IMG/VR virus record: IMGVR_UViG_3300034375_003040
Coordinates: 1-52,196 of that record
Origin: a virus
Reading direction: 5' to 3' (one strand)
DNA length: 52,196 bases
Shown: piece by piece, positions 8,638 to 34,234 of the stretch
How positions within the stretch are numbered: the stretch's first letter is position 1
How the letters are laid out: every line of letters begins with the position of its first letter
The notes under the pieces: generated by a model
What the model was told of the DNA's origin: nothing
The model's database searches: none
Seen by the model: only the letters and a program-made list of their open reading frames with translations
Made by a program: the position numbers and the translations under genes

Positions 8638-10209
8638 ATGGGATATTTATACGGTAAAACAGACTTAAGCTATTACGAAGGTTCAGAGCACGGTGACTAT
8701 CAGTTTTGTTCTTTAGATGATATTATAGAGCAATTTATGGTTGTTTATGTTGGTGATGAAAAACTAATAACTAATGTTAGTAGAACAGACGTGCAGTTTC
8801 ACGCGTATAGAGCTTTAGCTGAGCTTTCTTTTGACACTTTTAAATCTGTAAAAGCTCAACAGATAGAGGTGCCGCCAAGCTTAACCATGATATTGCCAAA
8901 AGACTATGTCAACTACACAAGGCTTAGTTGGGTTGATTCTTCTGGTGTTAAACATCCTCTATACCCTACAAAAGATACTTCAAATCCATTTGAAATAAAG
9001 CAAAACTCAGATGGCACTTATGAGTTTCCAACTCAAGCAGATCTTTTTCAAAACGCAAGTTTTACAGATGGCTTAGAAGGTTGGACAAAAAGCCCACAAG
9101 TAGTAAGACCTCCTTCTGTAGGCGGAGTTGTAACTAGTATTTCAGTAGACGCCTCCGCAGAAAATCCAGTTGTAAAGTTTCAAAACCACGCTACAATAGG
9201 AAGTTCTAATGGTAATTCTTCTTATGGCTATTGCACATATATATATCAAGAGATAGACGCTACAGATCTTGGCGCTATATCTTTTGGAGCTACAGCAACT
9301 ACCAATGCCTCTTCAAGTTTAACCATTACAGAGGCTGAAGCTGCTGCAGCTATTACAAACTACGGTACCGCTGGAACTTTCACTAAACCTGGTAGTACAG
9401 TTAGAGTTGGGCTTTCTACTCAGCCACCTTCCGACGAAATCTCTATGCAAAACTATGTTTGGCAAGGCGTACAGTACCACGCTCCCACTCCAAATGCTAA
9501 TCCAAACTATTTTGACTTAGGCTATATAGAGTGGACACAGGGTGAAAGCGGTCTTAAAAATTACGAAGGAGAGCTTATAGACTTGACAAATGCTACTGGC
9601 GCGATATATTTGGTTGCGTTAAGTATTATTGATCACACGGATATTGATGTTACGGCCTACAACAGTAGCCTGCTATTTGACACGGCTACTGTAGATGATA
9701 TAGCAATATCAAATCTTAATGTTAAGCCTTCTTTAACAGAAGTAGATTCTGGAGTTTCTTCAACTTTTAAAAATTATAAAGCAAACACACCTCACGAAAA
9801 TCAAACTGAGGATTACGAAGACGATACGTATTGGCCTCAGCAAGGTGAAAGATATGGCCTTGAACCAACAAGAGCTCAAATAAACGGATCTTACTATATA
9901 GACAACAGAATGGGCAAAATAAACTTTAGCTCTAACATTGCTGGAAAAACTGTGATATTAGATTATATAAGTGATAGCCTTGGCACCGACGGCGAAATGA
10001 AAGTACACAAGTTTGCTGAAGATGCAATATACAAATGGATAACCCACTCGGTGTTATCAAGCAGGATAAACATACCTGAGTATATAGTTCAGCGTGCTAA
10101 AAAAGAGAAGTTTGCTGCAACTAGACAAGCAAAGCTAAGACTATCAAACATTAAGTTAGAGGAGATTACTCAAATACTTAGAGGTAAGTCTAAGCAAATA
10201 AAACACTAG
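8638..10209 (+). CDS. crAss-like ring/tail-tube protein with inserted jelly-roll-like domain
   Basis: 523 aa. The N-terminal ~125 residues (IIEQFMVVYVGDEKLI, SRTDVQFHAYRALAELSF, KDYVNYTRLSW) and the C-terminal ~130 residues (YYIDNRMGKINFSS, GTDGEMKVHKFAEDAIYKW, LRGKSKQIKH) read like one conserved ring protein of crAss-like phages. Between them, about 140-362, sits a beta-rich module starting FTDGLEGWT and ending VDDIAISNL, the opening and closing pattern of carbohydrate-binding jelly rolls. The insertion is in frame and no break is visible. The ring role is inferred from family memory; sugar binding is a hypothesis. Confidence 0.72.
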   Translation: MGYLYGKTDLSYYEGSEHGDYQFCSLDDIIEQFMVVYVGDEKLITNVSRTDVQFHAYRALAELSFDTFKSVKAQQIEVPPSLTMILPKDYVNYTRLSWVDSSGVKHPLYPTKDTSNPFEIKQNSDGTYEFPTQADLFQNASFTDGLEGWTKSPQVVRPPSVGGVVTSISVDASAENPVVKFQNHATIGSSNGNSSYGYCTYIYQEIDATDLGAISFGATATTNASSSLTITEAEAAAAITNYGTAGTFTKPGSTVRVGLSTQPPSDEISMQNYVWQGVQYHAPTPNANPNYFDLGYIEWTQGESGLKNYEGELIDLTNATGAIYLVALSIIDHTDIDVTAYNSSLLFDTATVDDIAISNLNVKPSLTEVDSGVSSTFKNYKANTPHENQTEDYEDDTYWPQQGERYGLEPTRAQINGSYYIDNRMGKINFSSNIAGKTVILDYISDSLGTDGEMKVHKFAEDAIYKWITHSVLSSRINIPEYIVQRAKKEKFAATRQAKLRLSNIKLEEITQILRGKSKQIKH

Positions 10210-10212
10210 TAG

Positions 10213-13200
10213 ATGGCAGAAATAAAAAACACATTTCTTAAAGGTAAAATGAATAAAGACCTTGACGAAAGATTAGTGCCTAAAGGAGAATATATAGACG
10301 CTATGAACGTTGAGGTTTCTACTTCAGAAGGATCTAATGTTGGTACAGTACAAAATATACTAGGTAACTATAGAGTAGCAGGTCTTCCTAACGCTGAGTT
10401 TAGGTGTATAGGCTCTATAACTGACGAGCAAAACAATAGAATTTATTGGTTTGTTACATCTACTACTGTGGACATGATATTAGAGTGGGACGACCAACTG
10501 CAAAAGTCTACCCTTGTTTTTGTTGACCCTAACAAAAGAAACAGTAATTCAGCTTTAAACTTTCCAAATACACATGTTACTGGAATAAACATTATTGATG
10601 ACTTTCTGTATTGGACTGACGGTATAGGAGAGCCTAAAAAAATAAACGTTAGACTTTGCAAGCTAGGAACAGATCAAAATCAAACTACAGGCTTAAACAA
10701 GCATACTACTTACGTTACACCTCAAAATGAGGTTACAGACACTTTGCTTACTGAAGACTTTATAACTGTAATAAAGAAAAGACCTTTATCTCCTCCTTTT
10801 GTAAAAATAAATCATAACAAAAACAAATCTGAAAAAGGTATATTTGAAAGAGTAATGCCTAGGTTTTGCTTTAGGTATAAATATAGAGACGGCGAATACT
10901 CTGCTTTTGGACCTTTTACAAACGTAGTATTTAGCGCTAAGCATCAAGACGGCACAAGCGCCTCTGATTTTTACTCTAATAAAGAAGTTTACAACAAGTC
11001 AATGGTCAACACCATAAAGTCTGTTGAGCTTATGGATTTTATACCAGCTGATATTCCAGCTGATGTTGTTCAAGTAGACTTACTATATAAAAGCGAGGGC
11101 TCAAACGTAGTTTACTCTATAGCAAACATAAAACCTTCTGACGATGAGTTTAAAGCCGATGGATCTACTCAAGGAGTTGACAATCTTTATGGAGCGCAGG
11201 AAAACAACAAAGGTAGATATTTAGTTACAACAGAAAACATATACGCTGCTTTGCCTGAAAACCAAATGCTTAGATCTTGGGATAATGTACCTAGAAAAGC
11301 TGCTGCTCAAGAAATGACTGGAAATAGATTAGTTTACGCAAACTATACTCAAGGCTACGATATGCCAAGCTCTAGCGTTAAACTAAAGTCTAGTTACGAA
11401 AAGAAAAGCTTAAAAAACAACAACGCTCTAAGTGGAGGGCTTGAGTCTGTAAAGTCTTTAAGAGATTATCAGCTTGGCGTTGTCTATGGCGATAAGTACG
11501 GTAGAGAAACACCAGTGTTTTCTTCTACAAACGCATCTGTTAATATTCCTTGGGTAGGCGCTAATAGTGATAGGCCTAATTTTTTAAGCCCGATGGTGTT
11601 AACTAGCAGTATTAAAACGCCAACGCCAGACTGGGCTAAATACTTTAAGTTTTATATAAAAGAAACATCTGGAGAATATTATAATTTATTAATGGATAAA
11701 TTGTATATTCCAAGCATAAGCACAGATTTTGACAATAAAGAAGAGCATGTTTGGCTTTCATTTCCTTCTTCTGAAATAAACAAAATAACAACAGAAGATT
11801 ATTTAATCTTAAAAAAAGTTTCAAGCTCTACAGACAACCACGTAGAAGATGCTAATAGATATAAAGTTATAGATGTGAAGCCAGAGGCTCCTGACTCTGT
11901 AGCTTACGTATACTTACCCGTTGGTGAAGTTTCAAACTTAACAACATCTACAAACCTAGCAAACGGTGGCACTGAAGGCTCATTGTTTCAAGACAGCGAG
12001 TTTAGAATAGACAAACAAACAGATATTGTAGAAATTGACAAGTCTTCTTGGTTTACTTTTGGTTATCCAGTTTTAAGAGGTACGGGTGCGCCAAGCGTTT
12101 CGGGTGTAGACAATACTGAGTTTGTAGATAATATATATATTTCTTGGAAAACAGTAGATGCTAGTGGATTTGAGGTTCACTCAAGAAGATACCAAGCGGT
12201 TTCTATAGAAGTTGGTACTGCTATGAGGTTAAAACTACGCGAAAAAATACACGTAGATGACGCGGCTTTAGCTGCTAATAGTGCTGACGAATTAAATCAT
12301 GATTTAGTATTTACGGTTTATAGAAAAGAAAAGCGAGATGCTGAAGAGTTTTCTGGTAAGTTTTTTGTTAAGATACTGTCTGACGAAGTTATAAAAAATA
12401 ATATAACTACAATAAAGTCAAACAAGTCTATAAGTGAGTTTATTTCTGCTTCTAAAGATATGTTTTGGTGGGCAGACACAATTGGCACACATGAAGATCA
12501 AGGCTTAGACAACATGCCTAGTTTTGGACAAGCTCCTGAAAGCCAGCCTAAAGACGAAGATGAAATAAGTGGTGTATCAAATAAAGCCTCTGAGTGGGAT
12601 GCTCTGCTTACAAGTTATTCAAAAGCTTTTTTTATAGACAACATGCACATGTCTGCTGCTAACTTATCTTCTAGCAGCTATGCTAAAGAAGCAGGTCAAG
12701 GCGTTGTTGCAAATGAATTAACCTACGGTAAAGTAGAGTGGAACTCTGAAGGTGAAGAATATCCTTGGGACTTAAATCAATATACAACTTGGTCTTTAGC
12801 TGATATATCAAGCTACAGTACGTGGCAAAGTAGAGTTAGATCGTTTATACCTGGCGTCTTAACTACTACTAACGACCAAGTAAACGGCTTTTATAGATGG
12901 AAAAACGATATATTTAGTCAAGAAACAAACGAAACTTACGGCGAAGAAGCCGGCGGTCACTACATGCACGTTTCTTTTTTCGCGCCTGGAAAAAATTTAT
13001 TTGATTCTTCTGGGATTAGCTTAAATGACATAGAAGTTACCGGTGCTAATGGCTTAGGTAAAATACTACAAGGTATATGGGGCGGGGGTGCTTTTACTAA
13101 CGAGCAAGGAACTTCGCTAGGAAACAACGATGACGAAAATGCTGTAAAGTTTGTTGAGTTAGAAGGAAACTACATTGACGACGAACCTTTAGGCGAGGCT

Positions 13201-16200
13201 CCATCGCCAGGCGTAGGTATAGGTTATGACTTGGAGTATAAAGAACTGCATGAAAGACAGTGGGACCCAACCTTTTCACCTACAAAGTGGACACAGTCAA
13301 GCTCTACTCAAACAGACAAAAACATTGAAGACTTTGTTAAGAACTTAGCTATTGGCAAAAAGTTTAAGTTTGAGAAAGACAGCAACGATGTTATATACAC
13401 TATACTAGACGTTTCTATAAAACACGTGTACAACCACACTCCTTTTAGATCTAAATTTGTTTTTGCCCATACCGACGAAGGTGGAATACATAGGCACGAA
13501 GATCAAAAAAGTGTTGAAGAGTGCGCTGTTGAGTGGGCTACAGCTAAGCTAACAGGCTCGGTTGACGGTGAAGACACGGCTCTACTTGCTAAGTTAGAAG
13601 ACTTTGGTAAAGCTAGTAATAGAAGAACTGTATTTGTGCTAAAACTAGACAAAGCTCCGCAAGATCAAACTAACAGCCCTATTATAGGCGGTACATCTTC
13701 AGCTATGGCTATCGATATAGATACGTCTATGAAAATGCAGTTTATAGACGATAAAGCTCAAGCTTTGTCTGGGGCTGTTAAAGATGTTTCTGCTGTGTTT
13801 GAAACAGAGCCCAAAGACTCTTTAGACTTAAATATATTTTACGAAACTGGTGGTGCAATCCCAACAGAATTAACAATAGATAACGTTAGTCAGTTTGCTC
13901 CTGTAGGGTCAAGAATTGAGTTTGTTGATTTACCTAGCGCTACTAGGGGTGAAGATACTATAACCGACAATATATATGTAAAAAGTTGGGAGTATGCCGA
14001 AGGAGTAGGGCTTTATTTTAACACTGAAGGCGAAAGCGCTACAGCTAGTTCTAACGGTTTAGGTTTTAACATAAAAAACAATGAAGACGTACAAATAGAC
14101 TACGTTAACACTAGAATTAGATTTTATAGACCAGACGGCAGCTTTACAACCTGTAGGCTTGGACCACATTATGAGCTTGAAAGCGATGCTAGTCAAAGAG
14201 CTATTTTTATAGTAAACCCTATGGTAGACGCTTCTTTAGAAACTGGATTAAGCTGGTATAACTGCTTTACGTTTGGAGACGGTGTTGAGTCTAATAGACT
14301 AAGAGATGATTTTAACGCTACGTTTATAGGCAATGGCGCTAAGGCTTCTACCACGTTAGAAGAGCCTTACTCTGAAGAAAACAGAAAGCACGGTTTAATT
14401 TATTCAGGCCTTTACAATGCTAGCAGTGGATTAAATAACTTAAATCAGTTTATACAAGCAGAAAAAATAACAAAAGACTTAAATCCTACTTACGGAAGTA
14501 TACAAAAGCTTTTTTCAAGAAGAGCTGATCTTATAGCTTTCTGCGAAGATAGAGTTGTTAAAATACTAGCAAACAAAGACGCTTTATTTAACGCTGATGG
14601 TAATACTAACATTGTAGCAACTACAAACGTTTTAGGTCAAGCTACACCTTTTGTTGGCGACTACGGTATATCTAAAAATCCTGAGTCGTTTGCGTTTGAG
14701 TCGTACAGAGCGTATTTTACTGATAAACAAAGAGGCGCTGTGCTAAGACTATCTATGGACGGGTTAACGCCTATATCCGACGCTGGTATGCACGATTATT
14801 TTAGAGATAATCTTCCTAAGTCTGGAGCGTTGTTAGGTACTTATGACGAATATAAAAGACAATACAACTTAACGCTTAACGACTACATATACAACAACTT
14901 AATACAAAACTCTTACATTTCAGAAGGTGAAGAGCTAAGCGTGTCTTCTTATGTTACAGAAATAATAGATAATCCTAACCTTGAGTCTGGTATTGAATAT
15001 ACGGCTGTTGATATAGCTAGCATATATGATAACGCAACGGAGGGTGATGAAAATCTTCCTGTCGTTAACTCATCAATAGATTCTGAAGTTACAATAATAA
15101 ACTGGCCAGAAATACCAGTTGGAGCTATAAGCCAAGCTTGGGACAATTTTAGTACAATAGTATCATACAACGAGGCTTACGCAGACGAAATACTACCAAA
15201 CTATGGAGCTATAATGGTTCCGGGTAATGCAAGTAATGGCGCTGAACAATATCAAACAAACGTAGGCGCTCAAACTCTTGTTACTACTCAAAATTTACAA
15301 AACGCTGTTTGGCCAACTTTTGGTAGCGGTAGCTACATGATCAGAAAAGAAACTTTTGGCACAAACTGGCAAGTAGACGGGCAAGAAGATCAAGAATCTA
15401 CCGCAACCTTTAGCATACCAGGTAATGTATCTGGCGTTATAGAAACTAACGGCGCTCCTTCAACTACAAATAACGCTCCTAGCGATGGCGCGGTTGGCTT
15501 GCGCACTAACACTGATTACTTAACATTTCCATACGGTCATTCTGGCGCAAACAATCAAGTTCCCTCTGCAATGCTAGCAGAGTTTCCTGACGCGACAAAC
15601 ATGAGCGTATTTAATGGAGAAGAAATTTGGGTAAAAATAAATTATTCAGTAGAGTATTATAGACCTGGCTTTTCGGCTTTTTCACAAGACGACTACTGGC
15701 CTAGTAATATGGATATTAAAATTACACTAAGAGATTCTGACGGCAGTAACGATCATTTTAGAAGTACACCGTTATTTTCGGCAAACATTCCAGAGGTATG
15801 GACCGGCGCGGGTGGAGCAACTGACAATACGCCGTTTCACTCTACTGGAAGTTTGGGTAGTAATAACTTTAATGCGACTAACAACAACTTAGAATCACAT
15901 GGGTATGCTCAATATTCTTGGTCTAATTCTGATGAAAGCGCTTTGTACGCTCCCTCTGGACCGGTTAGCTCTTGGACTCCAGACTATACTTTTACTGTTC
16001 CAGGGGTAAGTGGTGTTCATGACAACTCTAACGACACTGGGTATATTCTTAACAGCAATGAGTACGATGGAGTTTGGAATAATAGTTATGAGAGCGACAA
16101 TATTTACGGAATGGATATTGTTAGTACTACGTACAACCAAAAAAGATTTTTTACTGGCTTTAGAACCATGATTGTTAAGTTTAAAATTTTTACTGATGAA

Positions 16201-18933
16201 GAAGTAATGAGTCCTTCTGGAAGTGCTTTAAAAATTGTAGACAATCTTCAGGTTAAAGTAGAAAGAACTAGTAACGCCCCGCTTACAAGTAATGGTCGCC
16301 ACGCTCTTTGGATTCGAGGTATGGCCATTTACAAAACCCGCGAAATGAAAACTACGGGAAGTGCTTACGTTCCTTTAGCGCAAGAATATCAAGATGACGC
16401 TCCTGAGTACGCGTATTATGATGTAGATGCTCAAGTATATCAAACTGCCGCGGACGGAACTGAATACGGGACTTTATCTGAAGCTCAAGGGACAGCTGCA
16501 GAAAACTTAGGCAACATTGACACTGGCGTAGACATAGAGCTTGATCCAGTCCCTGTCTTTGGAACCGAATCTACACCGGCGGTTCCTAGTTCTACAATAC
16601 CAGCTTGGGCAGAAGTTATACACGCTTTACCGTCAGGCTACAATTCGTACGGAGTAACTCAACTTAACTACGCTGCGCTGCAACAGTACGGTCAAGAAAA
16701 CCCTGGAACGTGGCAAACAGTATCGATTACTCAAGAGGGTGTTACAAACGACTATCAATATTACACAGGCACCGACAACGGCGTAACAACGTATCAACAG
16801 CATGGTGCGGGTGAGGCTTATGATAACCACAATGGAGCGGCCTTGTCTTCTTACAACATTGCCGGAGTAACGCATCACGTTGTAGACGGCTCAATAGGAA
16901 CGCTAGACACAGGGCAAAACACTGCAGGGTTTAAAGTAGACGTGGAACTAGTAGATGGTGATTGGTACATGGTTGATCTTGGTTACGATCCAGACTCTGT
17001 CACTATTAACACGCCGGACACAAGTAACTTTTTAAGATTAAACGGAGATGTTATTCCTATAATATATGGTTGTATACCTTCAGCAGTCGGTGGTGGCGAC
17101 GCGTACAAAACAATTCCTGGTGACGCAAATTATCCAAATGGCTATTTTGGCCAAATGTTTAGATCCCCGGGCGCAACAGGAAACACGGACAGTAGCGGAA
17201 GTATAACAACTCCAGTTGGTGGTGTAATATGTATGCCAACAACGGCTACAGAGTATGGAGAACAAAGACCCGTGCTTAGAGCGGTGTTTCAAGCTAGTAG
17301 CCAAGCTTATGAAGGCTTAGACAAAATTAGACTTAGTTTGCGGAACTGTCAAAATGGACTTGTTGAAATTAATGATATTACAGTAATTAACATTTCTGAA
17401 ACTGGTGATTTAGGTGGCTTCTCTGAAGAGTGGAACGCTCAAACAACAAACAATTTAATAAACGCTTTAAGCGAGCCTATTTCTTATTATCAAAACGGCG
17501 GTTGGGTTTGGAATATACCAGAGATGTACAGCGGTAATGGAGCGGCTAATAGAATAGATTACAACTGGTCAGGCGACGAGCTTACTAGCGCTACTTCAGC
17601 CGGTTATGCTTTGAAGTTTGGAATACAGCCAAACCCAGACACAGGGACTGTCGAAGGAAAGCTATATATAAGAGTTGAAACCCCTGAGTGGGAAGATGGT
17701 CAAACTAGAGTTATTAGAGCTATAGTAGACGCAGCTGGCGACTATTCTGTGTTTTTTAATCTTGATGGATCAGGCATATCAAGCATAGTGCAACCAGAAG
17801 GTTCTAACGCTAGCATTTCAATGAGCACTCAGCCTCCAGATATACCCGGCATATACGCTAGACCTATAAATCAAGATGGCTCTACTGGTAACGTCGTGCC
17901 AAATTGGTTTGTTGGTAAAATAGATTATTTATCTATAATAGACGAAACTTCTATAGTAAGTGGAGGCGTTGTAGGTTCGTGGGTGTTTAGCGAAATAGAT
18001 TATGAGGGTAGTGAAATAAACACTCTTAGTGCAGACAACCTTAATAATCTTTTATTTGCAGAAGAACAAATTAAATGGGATGAGGCGTTAAAAGGATTAA
18101 GAGTTTCTCAAGCTATAGAACAAGAAATATTGGTTGGTCAAAAATACGACGTTAGCTTTAACGTAACTTCTTTTACCTCTGGTTCTATTGAAGTTGCTTA
18201 TTACGCTAGTCCAACGGCAGGGTTTGTGTTTACTGTAGATGGAAGCTCACTTAATATTTCAGAAACTGTAGATATACAAAGCATTGACTCTTTTGACTCT
18301 AATCAACATGTAATAGGTTCTTTAATGATAACATCTTCTAGTGAAGACTCTTTAACAACCATGTCTATAGACAACATTACAATGACTCAAATTGCTTTTC
18401 CTGAAGTAACAAAGCAAACTATATCTTATAGCGAAGAGGTAAAAGGTTGGACTAGCTTTAAGTCGTTTATTCCTGAAAGTGGAACTAGTGTTTCTAAAAA
18501 GTATTTTACTTTTAAAAACGGAGAAGCTTATCAGCACTACCATCAAGAAGCTACACCAAACACTTTCTACAATATACAGTCAGTGCCCTCAACAATAACA
18601 ACGCTTTTAAACGATGCGCCTGAGCTTATTAAAAACTTTAAGACAATAAACTACGAAGGATCGCAAGCTCACGTTCCTAATAGTGACACAATTTTAGGTG
18701 TTACAGACTCAGACTTACACAATCAGTTTACTAAGCTTGGATGGAAAGTGTCAAGCATAGATACAAATATGGAAAGCGGCTCTATAAAAGAGTTTATAGA
18801 AAAAGAAAACAAGTGGTTTAATTACATAAAAGGAAAAGGTGAGCCTAAAACATCTGATTTTACATTTCAAGGTATAGGAGTTTTGTCGGCAAATCCTATA
18901 GAGCTAGTGCCAGAAAACATTGAAGAAGAGTAG
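10213..18933 (+). CDS. Giant muzzle / tail stabilisation protein with ~1180-aa insertion
   Basis: 2906 aa. The N-terminus (NTFLKGKMNKDLDERLVPKG, residues 6-25) and the region around 1430-1555 (TYGSIQKLFSR, CEDRVVKILANKDALFNADG, FVGDYGISKNPESFA, YFTDKQRGAVLRLSMDG) read like crAss-like muzzle proteins, which resemble P22 gp10 packaged-DNA stabilisation protein. The C-terminus (EEVKGWTSFKSFIPE, from ~2742) is also of that family. Residues ~1557-2735 are extra: Gly/Ser/Thr/Asn-rich beta sequence with at least one jelly-roll-like module at ~2590-2730 (VGQKYDVSFNVTSF ... SIDNITM). It lies 3 nt after the ring-protein stop. It probably caps the tail and, through the insertion, contacts the host surface; that last point is inference. 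Confidence 0.75.
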   Translation: MAEIKNTFLKGKMNKDLDERLVPKGEYIDAMNVEVSTSEGSNVGTVQNILGNYRVAGLPNAEFRCIGSITDEQNNRIYWFVTSTTVDMILEWDDQLQKSTLVFVDPNKRNSNSALNFPNTHVTGINIIDDFLYWTDGIGEPKKINVRLCKLGTDQNQTTGLNKHTTYVTPQNEVTDTLLTEDFITVIKKRPLSPPFVKINHNKNKSEKGIFERVMPRFCFRYKYRDGEYSAFGPFTNVVFSAKHQDGTSASDFYSNKEVYNKSMVNTIKSVELMDFIPADIPADVVQVDLLYKSEGSNVVYSIANIKPSDDEFKADGSTQGVDNLYGAQENNKGRYLVTTENIYAALPENQMLRSWDNVPRKAAAQEMTGNRLVYANYTQGYDMPSSSVKLKSSYEKKSLKNNNALSGGLESVKSLRDYQLGVVYGDKYGRETPVFSSTNASVNIPWVGANSDRPNFLSPMVLTSSIKTPTPDWAKYFKFYIKETSGEYYNLLMDKLYIPSISTDFDNKEEHVWLSFPSSEINKITTEDYLILKKVSSSTDNHVEDANRYKVIDVKPEAPDSVAYVYLPVGEVSNLTTSTNLANGGTEGSLFQDSEFRIDKQTDIVEIDKSSWFTFGYPVLRGTGAPSVSGVDNTEFVDNIYISWKTVDASGFEVHSRRYQAVSIEVGTAMRLKLREKIHVDDAALAANSADELNHDLVFTVYRKEKRDAEEFSGKFFVKILSDEVIKNNITTIKSNKSISEFISASKDMFWWADTIGTHEDQGLDNMPSFGQAPESQPKDEDEISGVSNKASEWDALLTSYSKAFFIDNMHMSAANLSSSSYAKEAGQGVVANELTYGKVEWNSEGEEYPWDLNQYTTWSLADISSYSTWQSRVRSFIPGVLTTTNDQVNGFYRWKNDIFSQETNETYGEEAGGHYMHVSFFAPGKNLFDSSGISLNDIEVTGANGLGKILQGIWGGGAFTNEQGTSLGNNDDENAVKFVELEGNYIDDEPLGEAPSPGVGIGYDLEYKELHERQWDPTFSPTKWTQSSSTQTDKNIEDFVKNLAIGKKFKFEKDSNDVIYTILDVSIKHVYNHTPFRSKFVFAHTDEGGIHRHEDQKSVEECAVEWATAKLTGSVDGEDTALLAKLEDFGKASNRRTVFVLKLDKAPQDQTNSPIIGGTSSAMAIDIDTSMKMQFIDDKAQALSGAVKDVSAVFETEPKDSLDLNIFYETGGAIPTELTIDNVSQFAPVGSRIEFVDLPSATRGEDTITDNIYVKSWEYAEGVGLYFNTEGESATASSNGLGFNIKNNEDVQIDYVNTRIRFYRPDGSFTTCRLGPHYELESDASQRAIFIVNPMVDASLETGLSWYNCFTFGDGVESNRLRDDFNATFIGNGAKASTTLEEPYSEENRKHGLIYSGLYNASSGLNNLNQFIQAEKITKDLNPTYGSIQKLFSRRADLIAFCEDRVVKILANKDALFNADGNTNIVATTNVLGQATPFVGDYGISKNPESFAFESYRAYFTDKQRGAVLRLSMDGLTPISDAGMHDYFRDNLPKSGALLGTYDEYKRQYNLTLNDYIYNNLIQNSYISEGEELSVSSYVTEIIDNPNLESGIEYTAVDIASIYDNATEGDENLPVVNSSIDSEVTIINWPEIPVGAISQAWDNFSTIVSYNEAYADEILPNYGAIMVPGNASNGAEQYQTNVGAQTLVTTQNLQNAVWPTFGSGSYMIRKETFGTNWQVDGQEDQESTATFSIPGNVSGVIETNGAPSTTNNAPSDGAVGLRTNTDYLTFPYGHSGANNQVPSAMLAEFPDATNMSVFNGEEIWVKINYSVEYYRPGFSAFSQDDYWPSNMDIKITLRDSDGSNDHFRSTPLFSANIPEVWTGAGGATDNTPFHSTGSLGSNNFNATNNNLESHGYAQYSWSNSDESALYAPSGPVSSWTPDYTFTVPGVSGVHDNSNDTGYILNSNEYDGVWNNSYESDNIYGMDIVSTTYNQKRFFTGFRTMIVKFKIFTDEEVMSPSGSALKIVDNLQVKVERTSNAPLTSNGRHALWIRGMAIYKTREMKTTGSAYVPLAQEYQDDAPEYAYYDVDAQVYQTAADGTEYGTLSEAQGTAAENLGNIDTGVDIELDPVPVFGTESTPAVPSSTIPAWAEVIHALPSGYNSYGVTQLNYAALQQYGQENPGTWQTVSITQEGVTNDYQYYTGTDNGVTTYQQHGAGEAYDNHNGAALSSYNIAGVTHHVVDGSIGTLDTGQNTAGFKVDVELVDGDWYMVDLGYDPDSVTINTPDTSNFLRLNGDVIPIIYGCIPSAVGGGDAYKTIPGDANYPNGYFGQMFRSPGATGNTDSSGSITTPVGGVICMPTTATEYGEQRPVLRAVFQASSQAYEGLDKIRLSLRNCQNGLVEINDITVINISETGDLGGFSEEWNAQTTNNLINALSEPISYYQNGGWVWNIPEMYSGNGAANRIDYNWSGDELTSATSAGYALKFGIQPNPDTGTVEGKLYIRVETPEWEDGQTRVIRAIVDAAGDYSVFFNLDGSGISSIVQPEGSNASISMSTQPPDIPGIYARPINQDGSTGNVVPNWFVGKIDYLSIIDETSIVSGGVVGSWVFSEIDYEGSEINTLSADNLNNLLFAEEQIKWDEALKGLRVSQAIEQEILVGQKYDVSFNVTSFTSGSIEVAYYASPTAGFVFTVDGSSLNISETVDIQSIDSFDSNQHVIGSLMITSSSEDSLTTMSIDNITMTQIAFPEVTKQTISYSEEVKGWTSFKSFIPESGTSVSKKYFTFKNGEAYQHYHQEATPNTFYNIQSVPSTITTLLNDAPELIKNFKTINYEGSQAHVPNSDTILGVTDSDLHNQFTKLGWKVSSIDTNMESGSIKEFIEKENKWFNYIKGKGEPKTSDFTFQGIGVLSANPIELVPENIEEE

Positions 18934-18936
18934 ATT

Positions 18937-20154
18937 ATGAAGTTAATAAAATCAATACAACTAAACACTGGCGATATACCTAAGGAAGGCGCCGTAAGAA
19001 GCTTTACTATAAGAGGTGATGAAGGCGCTAAGTTTATATTTATAGTAAGTAATTCTTCTGGATCTTATTACGACTTTACTGACAAAACTTTTTCTACAGG
19101 ACACTCTCCTCAAAAAATGATTAAAAGTGGATTATTAGGCGGTAGCTACGATGGTGAAATAGAATTTCCAGACGCCGCTGGATCTTTATATGATATACTT
19201 TTAATTGCTGATCCAACAGATGAAACAGAAATGAAGTTTGGCAAAGCAATAAATAAAAGAATAGCTCAGCTAGGTAATACAACTTTAACGCTAGCCTTAG
19301 CTTCAACAGCTAACTCCAGTTCTTACAAGACGTTTCCTAGTAACGCAACTGTTGTCGGTAGTCCAACAAGCTCTGCTTCTAAAAGCATTAGTTGGAATAT
19401 AGAAAACGCTGATACAGACGCTAATGGTTTTGGTCTTATTCTCAACGAAGATGAACCTACTACAAACTTAATAATACAAGACAAAGCTTGGTATTTTTCA
19501 AATACACAAACCGTAGACGGTGATGTTTCTTCTTCTACTACAATTAAACTTGATTCGGTAAGCGATCTTATAGTAGGCATGAGAGTTTACAGCGGAGCCG
19601 GTTTGTCTGGCACTCCTAACATACGGTCAGTAGATACTACAACTAATACTATAACTATATCTAGCGCTCAGACAATTTCAGACGGAGTAACTTTAACGTT
19701 TAGAGCATCAGGAATGTCTTTAATAAATAGCGTGTTAGGTTGTTCCATAATACCAAGCTTAAGACTTACAGACTTAGTTAGAGTAACTTCAACTGTAAGA
19801 GGTACTGTTAGTAACAGCACGGTAGTGACACTTAATGGAACTTACGGCATTCCAGGCGGAGACATTGCTACCTACACTGGCAACGGTGTTAACAATTCTA
19901 GCACCAACACTGTAACAAACAACAGAACTGCTATTGGCAACAACGTGGCCTCAGCTACTGCTGGAGAAATGGTAGTAACACTTGCTCAAACATTTAAAGG
20001 CGGTGAGGTACTAACCTTTGATGTTGCTCCGCCTAAACTTTTAGCTGACTCAATAACTCTTTCTGGCGGTGTAGTTGTAAACTCACAGCCAAGCGCTAAC
20101 AGAACAATATACTTAGATTTAGATTTTATAATAACCCCAGGAACAGCCTCATAA
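18937..20154 (+). CDS. Beta-rich virion protein with two degenerate repeats
   Basis: 405 aa, starting 3 nt after the muzzle-like gene. The N-terminal ~115 residues (RSFTIRGDEGAKFIFIVSN) form one domain. From about 190 there is a module with SSTTIKLDSVSDLIVGMRVY and TTNTITISSAQTISDG, and from ~285 a diverged second copy (NSTVVTLNGTYG, EMVVTLAQTF). Such TTNTITLSSAQ-type modules are common in marine phage structural proteins. It is Ser/Thr/Val-rich with no enzymatic motif. Probably a tail or appendage protein that assembles with the muzzle-like protein. Confidence 0.55.
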   Translation: MKLIKSIQLNTGDIPKEGAVRSFTIRGDEGAKFIFIVSNSSGSYYDFTDKTFSTGHSPQKMIKSGLLGGSYDGEIEFPDAAGSLYDILLIADPTDETEMKFGKAINKRIAQLGNTTLTLALASTANSSSYKTFPSNATVVGSPTSSASKSISWNIENADTDANGFGLILNEDEPTTNLIIQDKAWYFSNTQTVDGDVSSSTTIKLDSVSDLIVGMRVYSGAGLSGTPNIRSVDTTTNTITISSAQTISDGVTLTFRASGMSLINSVLGCSIIPSLRLTDLVRVTSTVRGTVSNSTVVTLNGTYGIPGGDIATYTGNGVNNSSTNTVTNNRTAIGNNVASATAGEMVVTLAQTFKGGEVLTFDVAPPKLLADSITLSGGVVVNSQPSANRTIYLDLDFIITPGTAS

Positions 20155-20155
20155 T

Positions 20156-20524
20156 ATGCCAGATACATTTCACAAATTAACAGTTAACGTTGAGGGTAGC
20201 CTAAACGCTTCTTTGCAGTCTGGAGATATAGCTTATAAAGTTACTCAACAGACTTATACTTCTACTAACAACGTTTCGTACGCTCAAAACTCTCCAGTTA
20301 AGATCGGTGAAATAAGTAAAGTTGAAAATAACAACTTGTATATTAAAAACATGATTACAGATAACGCGCCTCAAACTGGTGACTTAATTATGTTTGCTAA
20401 AAACAAAACTGTCAACAAATCTGGCATAAAAGGTTATTATGCAAAGGTAAAGCTAGAAAACAACTCAGACGAGCTAGTAGAGCTGTTTTCAATAGCGTCG
20501 GAGATTTCTCCAAGCAGTAAATAG
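20156..20524 (+). CDS. Small structural protein, unknown
   Basis: 122 aa. The start follows the previous stop by 1 nt. The composition is beta-type (many Val, Thr, Asn, Ser) with no cysteines and no membrane segment. Its place between two virion genes suggests a tail or appendage part. I do not recognise the family. Confidence 0.5.
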   Translation: MPDTFHKLTVNVEGSLNASLQSGDIAYKVTQQTYTSTNNVSYAQNSPVKIGEISKVENNNLYIKNMITDNAPQTGDLIMFAKNKTVNKSGIKGYYAKVKLENNSDELVELFSIASEISPSSK

Positions 20525-21818: not shown

Positions 21819-23492
21819 ATGGCAGAAGATAAAGACAAACAAGGCAACGAGCTTTTAGGTCAAGACTTTCTTGGCGATATGCAAAAAAATGTTGACAGCA
21901 TGCCGGCTACTGGTTTGTTTGACAAACTAGCTAAGCTTGGAGCACAACAAAGATTACAACCTTTAGCAGATCAAAAAAGGTTTGAAAGTGGCTATAAGCC
22001 TCTTCTTAAAATGGTAGAAAACGCTGAAGACAGAGTTACGGCTGGCATGCTAGCATATAAGTTAGCTAATCCTGATATAGATGACTCAAAACTACACGGC
22101 GGTGTTGGAGATTTAGTTACTAGTACTATGACTGAAAACAACGCTAGGTTTAAAGAGCTAAACAGGCAGCTAGCATATATGTCGCCTAGAAACCCTAAGT
22201 ACGCTGACATAGTGGCTGAAATAGCAGATATAAACAAAAACTCTTTAGGTTTACGTGATCAAAACGCAAAGCTCATGGAAATAAAAAACACCATGAACGA
22301 CGCTAACTTTAACCTTGAAGAAATGTCTAAAGGTAACGCGCCGGGTGTTAAGAACATGTATTCTGATATTCAGCAAGGCGTATCGGATAACTTTCAAACT
22401 ATAGACGGTAAACTTTATTGGGTAGATCCTAATCCCGATATTGCTGATGATGATCCTGATAAAAGAATATCTATAGAGTCAATAAAAGCAGGAACGCCTG
22501 AAATGACTTATGGCGCAGCTTTTGACTCTCACATCGATATGCTAGCCGCCGTTTCTGATATGCCAGCAGAAAGCCCTAACTACGATCAAAACATACACTA
22601 CCAAGTTAACAATATGTTTAGCGATCTTGGTCAAGGCGGCGTTAAGTCGTTAATATTTGACTCTGAGCATAGCTTAGAAGATGACGAAGGAAATCTAGTA
22701 GGTTATAGCAAAAACGGAGACATGTTTAACACTTCAAACTGGTTTAATAAGTTTTATGAAGACCTAGGAGTAACAGATTCAAATGAAATGATAGACGTTA
22801 GGCAAGCTATACAGAAGAATGGTGTTAACCACAAAATAACAGGTGCTGACGGTAAAGAAAGAAAAGTAATTGATCATTTTAGAAAGTGGTATACTGATGA
22901 ACTTAAGAAAGTTGAAAAGTCTGAAAAAGGTAAGCCTAAGGCTACAACTGATCTAAACGATTTTGACGACACTAGAGGCGACGGTGACGACACCGATGTA
23001 ACTTTAAACACTACTGAAAGCGAAGAAACTAACGAGCTTATAGCTAACATAGCTGGTCCTAAACTTGAAAACGGAGTATACCAAAGCCAAACAGGGTCAG
23101 GAATTAACTTTGGAGATGACTTTAGTCCGTTTGCTGGTATAACACAATACGGTTGGGGCGAGCTAAGTGCAAACGATCATATTTTTGAGCTTGGAAAAGG
23201 CGTGCCTGAAACTCTTACTAAAGCTTATTCAGAATACGGGTTTGAGTTTAGTAACGTTGGACAGGTTGAAGATATTCTTTTAGTAAAATACGATCCAAAA
23301 ATACCAGGAGTAAGACCTATAACTAAAACGTTTGAATTCGATAATTACTCAGGTGGAGATATGGCTGGAGATGGCGACGAAGATCATATACAAGCGCTAG
23401 AGTTGCAAAAGTGGATGCACGAAGCAATCGGCTACAAGTCAGATTACGGCTTTAGTGTTGATGATTTAGAAGCAAAACTAGCAGGTCAATAA
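21819..23492 (+). CDS. Probable internal/cargo virion protein
   Basis: 557 aa. The N-terminal third is charged and helical (DKLAKLGAQQRLQPLADQK around 35-53). The central part is acidic, with a low-complexity Asp/Thr-rich linker near 385-408. No enzymatic motif or signal peptide is seen. It lies between the repeat-rich 413-aa protein and the 2587-aa protein; the next gene begins 6 nt downstream. The position matches internal or cargo proteins in short-tailed Bacteroidota phages. I do not recognise a named family. Confidence 0.5.
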   Translation: MAEDKDKQGNELLGQDFLGDMQKNVDSMPATGLFDKLAKLGAQQRLQPLADQKRFESGYKPLLKMVENAEDRVTAGMLAYKLANPDIDDSKLHGGVGDLVTSTMTENNARFKELNRQLAYMSPRNPKYADIVAEIADINKNSLGLRDQNAKLMEIKNTMNDANFNLEEMSKGNAPGVKNMYSDIQQGVSDNFQTIDGKLYWVDPNPDIADDDPDKRISIESIKAGTPEMTYGAAFDSHIDMLAAVSDMPAESPNYDQNIHYQVNNMFSDLGQGGVKSLIFDSEHSLEDDEGNLVGYSKNGDMFNTSNWFNKFYEDLGVTDSNEMIDVRQAIQKNGVNHKITGADGKERKVIDHFRKWYTDELKKVEKSEKGKPKATTDLNDFDDTRGDGDDTDVTLNTTESEETNELIANIAGPKLENGVYQSQTGSGINFGDDFSPFAGITQYGWGELSANDHIFELGKGVPETLTKAYSEYGFEFSNVGQVEDILLVKYDPKIPGVRPITKTFEFDNYSGGDMAGDGDEDHIQALELQKWMHEAIGYKSDYGFSVDDLEAKLAGQ

Positions 23493-23498
23493 AACTAT

Positions 23499-26400
23499 AT
23501 GAACAATATACAGCATTTATATAAAGCTTTAATAGAAAGCAATCTTTTAAACATATCGTTTGACAAGTTTTCTCAGTTCTACGAGAACGACAAGTACAAG
23601 CAAAATGTTTTTTCTGCTATTAAAGAAAAAGGCTTGTTTGAGGGAGACTTTGAAAAGTTTTCAAGCATGTACAGCCTACCTAAAGCAAAGCCCGGCGTTG
23701 ATGCTGATGGTAATGACATTATGATTGGCGGTAAAGTTAGTCAAGAAAAAAACACTTGGATAGAAAATGCTTTTGGTAAAAACACCGTAACAGACTTTGT
23801 AGGCGATTTATATAGATCTGGCAAACAAGGTTGGGCTGCGGGACAAAGCGTAGATGAAGCTTTAGAAGTATATAAAAAAGGTAGAAACTTATCTGCAGAA
23901 GATTTACAAGCTTTTTTAGACGCTAACAAGCGTATGCAAGAAGCTGGCGTTACAGATGAAATGCTTAACTACCAGAAGATGTACGAAGAAAATGGCGGTG
24001 GTATGTGGGGCGCTGTAAAAGCTTTTGCTGCAAATCCTACTATAGCTCCCTCTGTAATCGTAAGCTCCATAGCTCAAATGATTTCTTCTGCTGAAGACTC
24101 TGAAGAAGTTCTTGGTATGGCCGCTTTATCTTCAGGTGCTGGTGCTGCCGCGGGTGCTGCTATAGGTTCTGCAGGTTTTTCTCTTGGACCTCTTGGTGTA
24201 TTAACGACTGGTGGTGGTGCCGTGTCTGGCGCTGTTGGTGGTTTCTTTGGTGGTCTTACCGGTGTAATGGAAACTGGTAATACTCTAGCTCAACTACTAC
24301 AAGAAGAGATTGGTGAAGGTGTAGAGATGACAAAAGAAAACGTTAGAGCTATACTAGAAGATACCGATAAGTTTCAAGACTTAAAAGACAAAGCTGTAGC
24401 TAGAGGTTTAACTATAGGTGCTATTGAGGGTATAACAGCTGGAATATCAAGAGGTATAGGTAGTGTTGCTGTTAAAGGAGCTACTACCATGGGTAAAGGC
24501 GGTAAAAAAGTTCAAAAAGCTTTAACCGCAACGCAGAAAGGTAGGTTAGCAAAACAAGTTGCTGCGTTAGAAATGGGCGCTGGTGCTGGTGGTGAAGCTT
24601 TAGGTCAAAAGGCCGCTGGACAAGACCTTGACGCTAGTGAAATATTTTTAGAAGGTATAGCTGAAGCTAAAGGTGTTGCAAACGTAGCTGACATACTAGC
24701 TAAAAAGTCTTACACGTTAAACGGTGGTGCTGCAACTAGAAAAGATATAGAAAGCTTTTTAAACAACGAAAACATATCAAACGAAGACAAAGCTAAAGCT
24801 AACATAGAGGTTATTGGCGACAAGTCTTTAAAAGCTTTTGTTGATCAAACTCAAGGCAAGGCAATAGCAGACTCTCAAATAGATTCTAAGATAACAGATA
24901 AAGCCGATAGAGAAGCTTTAGTTGAACTTGAGCAGAAAAGAGTAGATCTAAATAAAAAAGCAGAAAAGAAAGGTATAGAGAAAGTACCTAACGCCGCAGA
25001 ACAACTTGCTACAGTAGAAGCTGAAATAGAAGCTATCATAGGTAAATACGAGGGTGCTGTAGAAATAGGTAAGTCTGAAGGCGCTCAAAAAGTAAGAAGA
25101 GCTAGGCTAGATATACTTAAAGATGAAATAACCGGTAAGGTTAAAAAAATGAAAGCCTACAAAGACATGGACATCGATACTTTTGAAGGAAGTATAGATG
25201 AAATTGTAGAGCAATACACCAATAACTTAGTTGAAAACGCTAGCTACGACATACAAGTGTTAGAAGCAGAGCTTAAAGGTTACCAAGAAAAAGGTGACAC
25301 AAAGTCTGTTAAGAAAGTTCAAGAGATGATAGCTGATCGTCAGTCAATACTTGAAGACGCTGCTAAAGGTTTAACGCAAGACGAAAAAGGTAAAAAGATA
25401 AAAATATCTGAAGCTGTTAACGCTGGTACTTATGGTATGCTTCTTGAAGACAACGCTACTGGTAAGTTAAAAATGGTGTTGAACAACGAAGCGGATATTA
25501 CTGATGAAAAAGGGTATATTAACGTAGCTGCACACGAGTTTTTACATGCTGCTTTACGTAAAACGTTTTTTAAAAAATCTGACGTTGTAGCTGGCATGAC
25601 CGAAGCAAGAGGCGCTGGTATACAGACGGGTCAAAAACTTATTAATCATTTACTTGAGTCTGGCGAGGTTGAGTTTCTTAACGAGATTAAATCTAGGCTA
25701 GAAGCTTATGGCGCTGTAGACAAAGATGGTAAAATTAATTTAACAGAAGACTTGCAAGCGCAAGAGGTTTTAAACCTGCTTTCTGACTCAATGGTTAATG
25801 AAATATACAAGGCTGAAAACGAAGGTTTCTTTGTTAAGCTTGGTAACATTATATCAGAGCAAATACAAAGCTTATTGCCCGCTAGCTACGCTAAAAAATT
25901 ACAGTTTAAAGATGGTAAGCAAGTGTTTGACTTTGTCAAAACTTTTGGTAAAGCTGTAGCTGGAGATAAAGCTGCTGGTAAAGTAATATCGAGAGCTGCT
26001 AAAGAAGGTATTGACGTAGGACCTATTAAAGGAAAAGAAGGCGCTAGAGTTACCGCTCAAAAGTCTTCTGTAATACAAGAAAAAGTTGACGGCTTTGCGT
26101 TAAATGAAGACGGCTCTAAAATGACTAAGCAAGAGTACGACGATAAAGGTAGCGTCGATGCTTACATGTATTTAATAGGCGAGCAAAACATAGATCCTTT
26201 AATTAACAAACAGCTAGTAAAAGCTGGCATAGACATTAATGCTACAGACGCTAACGTAAATGGCGTGCCACTAGAAGAGTTTTTAGAGCGTGTAAGAGAG
26301 TTGTTAATTCCAGATATATTAGGCTTTGATCCAGGTAGAGAAACTACTAAAGATGGCAAGTTTGGTTTATCTGGACACGTAAACAGTCGTATAGCTTTTA

Positions 26401-29400
26401 GAGTTGGCGACGCCGCTAAAAAAGCTAAAAAACAAGTTGCAGCAAGCTCTCTTGACAAAGACGTAAGTGGTGACGGTAAAATGACAGCCGCTGACTTTAT
26501 AGCAGATGAACAAGATGCTATGATTGAGGATTTTGAAAGTCGAGATCAAAGCATATTTGCCGATCCAATAGAAGAGCGTGGTGTCGTAAAGTCTGAATAT
26601 AGACAAAAACTAAAAAGAAAAGACGGTAAAAAGTTTATTGCCGAACAGCAAGAAGAAGATATAAGACAAGGCGTAAGAGATATAGTTAAGTCTCAAAAGA
26701 CTGAAATATCTGAAAAAGACTTTATGCTTAAGTTTGAAAACAATGTTAAGAAGAAAATGAAAAACATTGTGCAGCAAGCTATGGGCAGTGGCAAAAGTTT
26801 TATTGACTTTGTTTATGATAATATTGATGTTATACTAGAATATTCTACAATACAAGATCTTGTTGCAATGGAAAGGCTTGTTGGTCAAAAGTTTCCTGAA
26901 GGCAAAAGAATATTTAGCGTTATAGTAAAGAAAAACATAAGCCCAACAGAGGTTGACAACGCTATAAACAAGGGTAAAATAAAACCTGACGTTGGCAGAA
27001 CTACTGGCCCTGACTTATACGAAAAGCGTAAGCCAACAAAAGCAGAGGTTGAAGCTTTCTTTTTAGGTAAAACTTTTGATGGCCAAACAATGGCAGAAGT
27101 ATTGAACTACGAAATAGGTAGATCAACTAGAGGTACTAGAAAAGATGGCTTATCTCGTATGATGATTTCTACACTAGCTCTTGACGCCGTAATGGAAACA
27201 ATACAGGAGCCTGGCGTTATGGAAGAGGCGAGTGTATTTTCACCGAGCATAAACAAAGAAGTTCAACTTCAAGAGTTAGCGCTAAAAGTTAACAGAGGTA
27301 TTAACACTCAGTTTTCTTATGCTGGTGAAACGCAAGTGATAGAGCTAACAGATCTTCTTGAAAAGAACGGTCAAAAATCTAGCAAGGTCTTAGCATACAT
27401 TAAAAACAACAATATTTCTAAAGAAGTTGAAAACGAAGCTTTAAGAAGATTTGGAGGTAGAGGCCACGATCATCAAGGCGACTTAAATAAGTTACCCGGA
27501 TTTAAACAAAACTTAAAAAATGTTAAAATTGGGCGAGAACCTAGGCATAAATCTTTAGAAAGACTAGTACTTAAAAACTTGTATGATGGCGTAGAAAACA
27601 TTAAAAGCAAAACTAAAGAGGCTATAATGATGATGACTGAGCCTATGGAAGGTTTTATGCCAGACGCTATGCTAATGTTTCAACAAGGCGTAAAAAATAT
27701 TTTAGCAAGCTTTGAAGTTAAAGCAGACATAGCTAGAGGCGTTGCTAAAAGTTTTTGGTTTTCTAGTAAAGATCCTAGCGGTAAAAATCTTAAAACAAGA
27801 AAAGCTTTTGCCGAACAGCGAGACATGGACACTTTTTTAGGTTTATATAAAAAAGCTTTTGTAGAAATTAAAAAAATACCTAAACTTTTAGGCTTAGATT
27901 CTATTGACGGTGACACAATTATATCTCCAGTGCAATGGCAAAAAATAAAAGACAGTAAAATAGCGGCGGCTATATCTGGAATTACAATTGAAATAGATAG
28001 CGATTGGATCTCTAGAGCTTACGCTGCTAAAGAAATAGTAACTCACTACATAAACGTTGGTGCTGCCGGCCTGTTTCATCTTGGCGACGCTAAAAACGAT
28101 GTGTTAAATCTTGGCACGAAGTCTTTTGACGGCACTAAAATAATGTTAAACATTAGACTTGTTTGGAGCGGTAGTATGGGAAGCAAACCCGGCACAAAAA
28201 ACTACGGCAAACCTAAAGGCGGCACAATAAGGCTAAAAGTATATCCTGAAATAAACTCAAAAGATTTTGGAAAATCTAAAATAGGTAACTTAGTTAATCC
28301 TGTCGACGCTGAAGCTATAATGCAAAAAGCAAATCTTAAGCCTCAGGTGTCTAAGAGCAGAGCTAAAAACCAAAGAACAATTAATAATGCTTATAGCAAA
28401 GCTAGGCTTATAAACTCTGACACTGAGGCCAAAGGTATAAGTATATTTGATTTTGACGAAACTGTTGGTGTAAGCGAAAACTTTGTAATCGCAACTAAAG
28501 GCAAACAAACTAAGCGTATAGCTTCTGATGAGTGGCCGTTTGTTGGCGACGTGTTAGCTAGCGAAGGCTGGAACTTTGACTTTACAGACTTTAACAGAGT
28601 TACTAAAGGTAAACCAGGTCCGTTAATGCAAAAGCTTAAAAATCAAATAAAAAAGTACGGCGCTAAAGACGTATACATACTTACAGCTAGAGCACCTGAA
28701 AGTCAAAAAGCAATATATGACTGGTTAAAAACACAAGGCGTAAACTTACCTTACGAAAATATTACTGGGTTAGGCAACAGCACCGGCGAAGCTAAAGCTA
28801 TGTGGATATTAGATAAGTACGCTAACGAAGGATATAATGATATTTACTTTGTAGACGACGCTATACCAAATGTTGAGGCTGTAAAAAATATAATGGATCA
28901 GCTAGACATTAAGTCTAAGTCTGTTCAAGCAAGAGTACAATTTAGTAAAGGTTTAGGCAAAAAGTTTAATGGCATTATAGAACAAAACAAAGGTGTAGAT
29001 GCTGATAAAATATTTTCAGACGTATCTGCTAAAAAGTTTGGAAAAAGAAATAATCCGTTTAGATTTTTTGTACCACCAAGTGCAGACGACTTTTTAGGCT
29101 TGCTTAGATACTTTGTTGGTAAAGGTAAAGTTGGTGAAGCTCAAATGGAGTTCTTTAAAAAAGCTTTAATTGATCCGTTTGCTAGAGCTTATAAAGAAAT
29201 GAACTCTGCTAAGATGGCCATACTTAACGACTATAAAGAGCTATTGAAACAGTTCCCTGACGTTAAAAAGAAGTTAGGTAAGCTTATACCTGGGTCTGAG
29301 TTTACTTATGACAATGCTGTTAGAGTATACTTGTTTAATAAGGCTGGTCATAGTATACCAGGCTTGTCAGACAAAGAAGTTGCTGAGCTCTCTGACGTTG

Positions 29401-33361: not shown

Positions 33362-33387
33362 TAAATTAACAATAACAATAGATAAAA

Positions 33388-33822: not shown

Positions 33823-33833
33823 TAAATAAAGAC

Positions 33834-34232: not shown

Positions 34233-34234
34233 AT

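What the first reader, a model, noticed from the sequence alone, without database searches (positions are those of the whole stretch)
14880..18420. About 1180-residue insertion inside the muzzle-like protein
Conserved family segments end near residue 1555 and resume near 2736. The extra part is Gly/Ser/Asn-rich beta sequence with a jelly-roll-like module at its end. A stabilisation protein may have become a host-recognition device.
Basis: partly seen in the sequence, partly recalled or inferred. Interest (0 to 1): 0.68.

Follow-up and report, generated by a model that had tools for sequence, protein, structure and literature searches.

The report
Swappable adhesin block in phage muzzle
A marine crAss-like phage carries a 1,180-residue block of sugar-binding-like domains spliced into one hairpin loop of its tail-tip 'muzzle' protein; relatives have no insert there, have swapped pieces of it, or have the gene cut in two at that loop, so the site looks like a socket for exchangeable host-binding parts.

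Summary
ORF 10213-18933 (2906 aa) is a crAss-like muzzle protein. Conserved profile anchors end at residue 1555 and resume at 2736. In cultured phage phi38:1 the same junction is about 5 aa. Among 74 further relatives with both anchors in one ORF, 60 have 3-51 aa there and 14 have 113-1436. By profile alignment the site is a hairpin turn in a beta-propeller blade, outside the crass/IG2 region where published length variation lies. The insert is a chain of beta-rich modules. The last two are tandem paralogues, and a homologous insert in a relative matches solved carbohydrate-binding modules (TM 0.50-0.56, prob 1.00). Modules are exchanged between phages with near-identical cores, and module B has raised dN/dS (0.47 against 0.03-0.07 in the core). 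Not in the finding: the site gained or lost inserts at least 6 times; in some relatives, including cultured phi13:2, the gene is split at exactly this loop, and in phi13:2 the freed end carries a cadherin/Big_9 domain. Best reading: an in-frame adhesin cassette on the tail tip, working like the CBM-loaded 'evolved Dit' of siphophages. Host binding is inferred, not shown. Verdict: a real new variant of a known kind.

The parts
10213..18933 (+). Muzzle (tail-tip gatekeeper) gene, 2906 aa
   Evidence: phrog_14478 E 6e-131; PF25729 crAss_MUZ_C; same gene order as phi38:1 (terL-portal-...-ring-muzzle)
14227..14877 (+). Anchor A, residues 1339-1555: conserved propeller part that ends in the strand '...GTYDEYKRQYNLTL'
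   Evidence: HMM anchor; profile alignment to crAss001 gp44 with prob 95
14878..18417 (+). The insert, residues 1556-2735 (1180 aa)
   Evidence: Absent (3-51 aa junction) in most relatives; no tblastn match in 50,697 phage records at E<=1
14878..15282 (+). Module A, residues 1556-1690: moderately conserved lead-in, no confident fold
   Evidence: Alignment A2; pLDDT below 50
15283..16422 (+). Module B, residues 1691-2070: hypervariable, exchanged module
   Evidence: Replaced by a 26-31% identical allele in L001 whose core is about 95% identical; blastn break points 15287 and 16405; dN/dS 0.47 against L002
16423..17382 (+). Module C, about residues 2071-2390: beta-rich, fold uncertain
   Evidence: Alignment A2; low to moderate pLDDT
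17383..17937 (+). Module D, about residues 2391-2575: beta-sandwich repeat 1
   Evidence: 143-147 columns align to module E at prob 96-97 by hhalign; pLDDT about 70-80 in its second half
17938..18417 (+). Module E, about residues 2576-2735: beta-sandwich repeat 2, CBM-like
   Evidence: pLDDT about 75-85; homologous L010 insert matches solved CBMs
18418..18930 (+). Anchor B and C-terminal part, residues 2736-2906: the chain re-enters the same blade ('TISYSEEVKGWTSFKSF'), then crAss_MUZ_C
   Evidence: HMM anchor; PF25729; aligns to gp44 about 1201-1281
20156..20524 (+). 122-aa protein homologous to the C-terminal tail domain that is fused to the muzzle in phi38:1, Panino and elemoA
   Evidence: phrog_18548 positions 143-236; phmmer to Panino 2.6e-10 and elemoA 2e-7 tails

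Best explanation
The insert is an in-frame adhesin cassette: a chain of roughly five beta-rich modules, at least the last one or two being CBM-type beta-sandwiches. It is spliced into a hairpin loop of one propeller blade of the muzzle at the tip of a crAss-like phage tail. The core keeps its gating job. Assuming the hexamer seen in crAss001, six copies (about 0.75 MDa by residue count) would ring the tip and bind surface or capsular glycans of the bacterial host, either helping adsorption or coupling binding to opening of the gate. Specificity sits mainly in module B and the tandem repeats, which are exchanged by recombination between phages that share a core. Shown here: site, insert, homologues, module swaps, selection signal. 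Supported by prediction: CBM-type fold of the end module. Inferred: hexamer, outward position, glycan binding, coupling to the gate.
For: Precise empty site in most relatives. Repeated gain or loss at the same site: 10 parsimony changes, at least 6 forced by strongly supported branches. Module exchange with a near-identical core: window against L001 (core about 95%, module B 26-31%); L012 against L013 (core about 100%, insert 51-60%); L004 against L009 (core 81-100%, insert 32-39% over residues 1701-2000), while L004 module B is 88-94% identical to L040 although their cores are only about 75% identical; L009 against L039 (2301-2400 31%, 2401-2600 53-57%). dN/dS in module B against L002 is 0.47 with ordinary dS, against 0.03-0.07 in the core; codon positions 1+2 versus 3 are 71:46 against 73:244, Fisher p 6e-13. 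Fold: model of the homologous L010 insert against solved porphyran-binding CBM, CBM22, CBM11, CBM61, CBM16 and CBM15 (TM 0.50-0.56, prob 1.00); window insert against a tandem CBM22 and the CBM4-type 1ulo, and against phage tail proteins with CBM-cenC, concanavalin and F5/8C domains. D and E are tandem paralogues. The same site in cultured phi13:2 carries a Big_9/cadherin-type domain, E 4e-21. Literature: the crAss001 muzzle tip is proposed to contact the cell (PMC10172136).
Against: No member of the insert alignment hits a Pfam CBM at E<=1, and profiles of its modules hit no solved CBM by sequence. Mean pLDDT of the insert model is only 49 and its first part is unmodelled; the L010 model is low overall, 41. 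The phage has a separate tail-fibre gene (34598-37849), which also differs strongly in L002, so the muzzle insert need not be the main receptor binder. Module B is not the only variable stretch: cargo proteins also have highly divergent patches. dN/dS of 0.47 is below 1, so relaxed constraint is not excluded. A few rows inside the long-insert clade lack the insert (L044, L064, L065), so it is dispensable in some lineages.
Confidence: 0.62

Rival explanations
1. A decorative or stabilising extension: the domains form an outer shell that braces the muzzle or tail barrel or protects it, with no ligand.
For: Long chain of beta-rich modules; the ring protein just upstream has also expanded (523 aa against 283 aa in phi38:1); strong lysine depletion suits a solvent-exposed shell.
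Against: A brace should co-evolve with its contacts, but here modules are swapped between near-identical cores and evolve much faster than the core. Many relatives assemble without it.
Confidence: 0.15
2. The modules bind environmental polysaccharide (algal cell wall, particle gel or mucus-like matrix) rather than the bacterial receptor, and keep the phage where its hosts feed.
For: The best solved matches include a porphyran-binding CBM and xylan/beta-glucan CBMs; related cultured phages infect marine Flavobacteriia, many of which live on algal polysaccharide (own knowledge).
Against: Rapid exchange and replacement change at the tail tip fit host variation better than a shared matrix. The fold matches are too remote to name a ligand.
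Confidence: 0.13
3. The insert is under relaxed constraint, a tolerated loop expansion with no selected function.
For: The site tolerates 3 to 1436 aa and even a chain break; dN/dS is below 1.
Against: Module architecture and motifs persist across a clade at about 20% identity; a 3.5-kb frame has stayed open in many contigs; donor modules arrive in frame from other lineages.
Confidence: 0.07
4. A mis-assembly or chimeric contig.
For: Composition differs from the core.
Against: Same insert in L001, L002 and L003 from different datasets, and homologous inserts in more than a dozen other contigs.
Confidence: 0.01

Closest known systems
crAss001 muzzle protein gp44 (Pfam crAss_MUZ / crAss_MUZ_C; PMC10172136)
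   Same: Homologous C-terminal propeller part and crAss_MUZ_C; same place in the gene order; profile match prob 95
   Different: gp44 is 1371 aa. Its published length variation is in the crass and IG2 regions (318-1021). The window's insert lies at the position of gp44 about 1200, in a propeller hairpin that in gp44 is a short turn.
'Evolved Dit' proteins of siphophages: CBMs inserted in loops of a conserved tail hub (PMC10688798, PMC7291167)
   Same: Works the same way by design: CBM-type modules spliced into a loop of a conserved tail-tip ring protein, present or absent among relatives
   Different: Unrelated scaffold protein (galectin-domain Dit against beta-propeller muzzle), podovirus-type tail, much larger insert (1180 aa), and also natural gene fission at the site
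[quoted passage not shown]
   Same: Tandem beta-sandwich repeats in a crAss-like tail-region protein, fast evolving, proposed to bind the host surface
   Different: BACON is an Ig-like domain in a separate ORF; no BACON match in this insert
Cellulophaga phage phi13:2 gp120/gp121
   Same: Same loop carries extra sequence, including a Big_9/cadherin-type domain
   Different: The muzzle is two genes there: gp120 ends 503 aa after anchor A, and gp121 starts with anchor B at its residue 4
Cellulophaga phage phi38:1 gp097
   Same: Full homologue of the core, cultured
   Different: 1324 aa, no insert (about 5 aa), and the C-terminal tail domain is still fused

Membership tests
Crassvirales-type muzzle protein (crAss_MUZ / phrog_14478) | Sequence homology to the muzzle family | tested here: met
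   phrog_14478 E 6e-131; PF25729 E 4.6e-5 (below its cut-off for the window, but above it, E 1e-20, for split relative MW202828); hhalign to gp44 prob 95
Crassvirales-type muzzle protein (crAss_MUZ / phrog_14478) | Position after the ring protein and before the cargo genes | tested here: met
   Ring protein 8638-10209 upstream; order matches phi38:1
Crassvirales-type muzzle protein (crAss_MUZ / phrog_14478) | Hexamer at the tail tip with gate loop and crass fold | not testable with these tools
   No coordinates or particle for this phage
Carbohydrate-binding module (any CAZy CBM family) | Significant sequence match to a CBM family | tested here: not met
   No Pfam CBM at E<=1 for any of 18 inserts; no solved CBM by profile
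Carbohydrate-binding module (any CAZy CBM family) | CBM-type beta-sandwich fold | tested here: inconclusive
   Domain-level matches TM 0.50-0.56, prob 1.00 for the homologous L010 insert; weaker (TMt up to 0.45) for the window's own model; models of low overall confidence
Carbohydrate-binding module (any CAZy CBM family) | Binds a carbohydrate | not testable with these tools
   Needs a binding assay
'Evolved' tail-tip protein (works like evolved Dit) | Adhesin-type domains inserted in a loop of a conserved tail-tip protein, absent in relatives | tested here: met
   Insertion and absence shown; adhesin type by fold prediction only
'Evolved' tail-tip protein (works like evolved Dit) | Scaffold is a Dit/galectin protein | tested here: not met
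   Scaffold is a muzzle/propeller protein; analogy only
BACON tandem-repeat protein | BACON (PF13004) domains | tested here: not met
   No hit
DGR-diversified protein | Changes concentrated at adenines in a variable repeat | tested here: not met
   Module B substitutions show no marked adenine bias; the window was not searched specifically for a reverse transcriptase

The most novel reading that the evidence does not exclude
One propeller hairpin of the crAss-like muzzle is a general natural socket. Across marine crAss-like phages it exists as a closed turn, as an in-frame adhesin cassette of up to about 1,400 aa, or as a chain break where two genes complete one propeller blade and the freed end bears an adhesin. 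Phages would change host range by exchanging modules at this socket, with binding mechanically linked to the gate.
Probability: 0.42. Interest if true: 0.72.

Novelty: new variant of a known kind. Interest (0 to 1): 0.57.

Why it matters
CrAss-like phages are extremely abundant, yet how they recognise hosts and what opens the muzzle gate are open questions. A single defined loop where relatives differ by presence, absence, swap or gene fission of adhesin-like modules, on an otherwise conserved gatekeeper, gives a testable place to look. Cultured phages of both types exist: closed in phi38:1, split with a cadherin-type extension in phi13:2. It also extends the 'evolved Dit' idea to a different tail scaffold.

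Tried and rejected
1) Enzymatic insert (depolymerase): no Pfam or solved-structure sequence match; not claimed. 2) Same domain family at the other variable sites of the muzzle (between N1-N2, N2-N3, crass region), in the ring protein or in the 405-aa neighbour: hhalign gave no relation. 3) DGR diversification: no marked adenine bias. 4) Solved homologue of the muzzle by sequence: none found with P0001 or profile A1, so mapping was done on the crAss001 gp44 sequence. 5) Fold of the junction: the L010 C-half was folded, but the propeller part is low confidence, so the assignment of the site to the loop between strands B and C, and its facing the tip, rests on the sequence pattern of the blades and is an inference. 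6) Host by genome scan: no relative in 84,980 prokaryote genomes. 7) Donor of the L001 and window B modules: none found beyond the window's own close relatives. 8) The first tree, of 38 core rows, suggested one clean gain of the long insert; the larger 114-row tree shows several gains or losses, so the single-gain reading was dropped. 9) Panino appeared split at the site, but its break is inside anchor A; not used as a split example.

Full report
WHAT IS THERE. The window is part of a crAss-like phage genome (terminase, portal, ring and muzzle genes in the order of Cellulophaga phage phi38:1). ORF 10213-18933 encodes a 2906-aa protein that matches the crAss-like virion protein family phrog_14478 in several stretches, and the muzzle C-terminal domain. 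Iterated HMMs of the conserved parts end at residue 1555 (...GTYDEYKRQYNLTL) and resume at residue 2736 (TISYSEEVKGWTSFKSF...), leaving 1180 residues at window 14878-18417. The finding's coordinates are right to within a few bases.

IS IT AN INSERTION. In phi38:1 the two anchors are about 5 aa apart, in elemoA 19 aa, and in most of the first set of IMG/VR relatives without an insert 8-22 aa. Of 80 further relatives fetched with anchor A (at least 591 exist), 74 have both anchors in one ORF: 60 have 3-51 aa between them, 4 have 113-228, one 508 and nine 931-1436. A tree of 114 relatives built from the two anchors needs 10 gains or losses of an insert, at least 6 of them forced by strongly supported branches. 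Long inserts cluster in the window's clade (24 of 27 rows). So the site is a recurrent hot spot, and the window's clade holds most of the large versions.

WHERE IT SITS. Profile alignment to crAss001 gp44 (prob 95) puts the site at gp44 residue about 1200, 'DVYFTYK|DHCLCYSELINQF'. The crAss001 paper says that known length variation lies in the crass and IG2 regions, and gives IG2 as residues 318-1021. The window's site is therefore a different one, in the propeller part that follows. The sequence rhythm of the blades suggests the loop between the second and third strand of a blade, which lies on the same face as the blade-to-blade loop that bears IG1 in gp44, hence toward the tip. This last step is inference: the fold of the junction was not confident.

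THE CHAIN CAN EVEN BE CUT THERE. In IMG/VR relatives L089 and L077 the first gene stops after anchor A and a new ATG opens the second gene a few residues before anchor B. In L089 the stop comes right after the strand and the new start follows within a few bases: '...DEYNITIIE* / MAYTLTFREDVKGWVSF'; in L077 a 43-residue Ser-rich tail precedes the stop. The circular complete genome MW202828 has the same split, with 354 further residues after anchor A and a separate 183-aa gene between the halves. Cultured Cellulophaga phage phi13:2 has gp120 (anchor A ends at 1110 of 1613) and gp121 (anchor B starts at residue 4); its 503-aa extension holds a Big_9/cadherin-type domain, E 4e-21. phrog_18548, which matched the window's C-terminus, is matched end to end by gp121, so it is the family of such second halves. 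I found no description of this split or of inserts at this site in the papers searched.

WHAT THE INSERT IS MADE OF. No Pfam CBM match in any of 18 inserts and no homologue of the insert in 50,697 phage records. The AlphaFold model is confident only in the last 280 residues, which form beta-sandwiches, and partly so in module B. The last two modules are paralogous repeats (hhalign 143-147 columns, prob 96-97). Structure search of the window insert gives multi-sandwich proteins, among them a tandem CBM22 and CBM4-type 1ulo, and phage tail proteins with CBM-cenC, concanavalin or F5/8C domains. The homologous insert of L010 gives domain-level matches to porphyran-binding CBM, CBM22, CBM11, CBM61, CBM16 and CBM15 at TM 0.50-0.56. 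Whole-chain TM values are low, and the top-ranked multi-domain entries should be read only as 'strings of CBM-like sandwiches'.

HOW IT EVOLVES. L001 shares about 95% of the core but residues about 1692-2065 are replaced by an allele with 26-31% identity; blastn breaks at window 15287 and 16405. L012 and L013 have near-identical cores and diverged module B. L004 has the core of L009 but module B of L040. L009 and L039 differ in the repeat modules. Against L002 module B has dN/dS 0.47 with ordinary dS, against 0.03-0.07 in the core; replacement positions are strongly enriched (p 6e-13). Other variable stretches exist in cargo proteins, and the tail fibre differs in L002, so this is one of several variable regions, but within the muzzle it is the most variable one in these pairs.

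MECHANISM. The most economical account is an adhesin cassette hung from the tail-tip gatekeeper. The core forms the gate; the insert presents CBM-like modules, in six copies if the crAss001 hexamer applies, about 0.75 MDa in all by residue count. Binding could aid adsorption through capsule or help trigger the opening that the crAss001 authors expect from contact at the tip. What is shown is the site, the modules, the exchange and the selection signal. Ligand and coupling are inferred. Close parallels by design are the evolved Dits of siphophages, where CBM insertions in a tail hub protein aid adsorption to polysaccharide-bearing hosts (PMC10688798; PMC7291167).

VERDICT. Observation confirmed; interpretation partly supported and broadened. 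A new variant of a known kind (adhesin modules grafted on a conserved tail-tip protein), at a site and on a scaffold not described before in the papers I could search.

Noticed in passing
window 8638-10209: Ring-protein gene is 523 aa against 283 aa in phi38:1: both ends match, and about 240 aa in the middle are extra. Length varies from about 286 to 745 aa in relatives. Not related to the muzzle insert by profile comparison.
   Followed up: partly
window 18937-20154: 405-aa gene with no family match sits between the muzzle and its former tail domain; homologues found only in part of the long-insert clade (L001-L003, L005, L008, L013, L014, L016).
   Followed up: partly
window 20156-20524: The muzzle's C-terminal tail domain of phi38:1, elemoA and Panino is a free-standing 122-aa gene here, a second fission of the muzzle.
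   Followed up: partly
muzzle residues 82-122 and 199-211 (window about 10456-10845): Lineages with the long insert have only 36-58 and 11-13 aa at two earlier sites, where most lineages without it carry about 130-213 and 100-170 aa: alternative places of elaboration.
   Followed up: partly
window 34598-37849: Tail-fibre gene with many 'VGIGTTSP' repeats; in close relative L002 the fibre ORF is only 539 aa and matches well only in the last 223 residues (71%) plus about 46 at the start.
   Followed up: partly
window 32957-34594: Four small beta-rich proteins (119-144 aa) in a row, at least three looking like paralogues ('IGRLYAGDWMFIPW' type motif).
   Followed up: no
window 21819-23492 and 23499-28800: Cargo-protein genes contain highly divergent patches against L001 and L002, nearly as divergent as the muzzle insert.
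   Followed up: no
L089 6642-10490: After the split, the second muzzle protein carries about 1,100 extra residues made largely of repeated 'GCTDPxAxNYxxxAxxDDGSC' cysteine-rich units.
   Followed up: no
L048 11998-15911 (Maribacter phage Panino): Muzzle annotated as two ORFs broken inside anchor A rather than at the insertion loop; cause unknown.
   Followed up: partly
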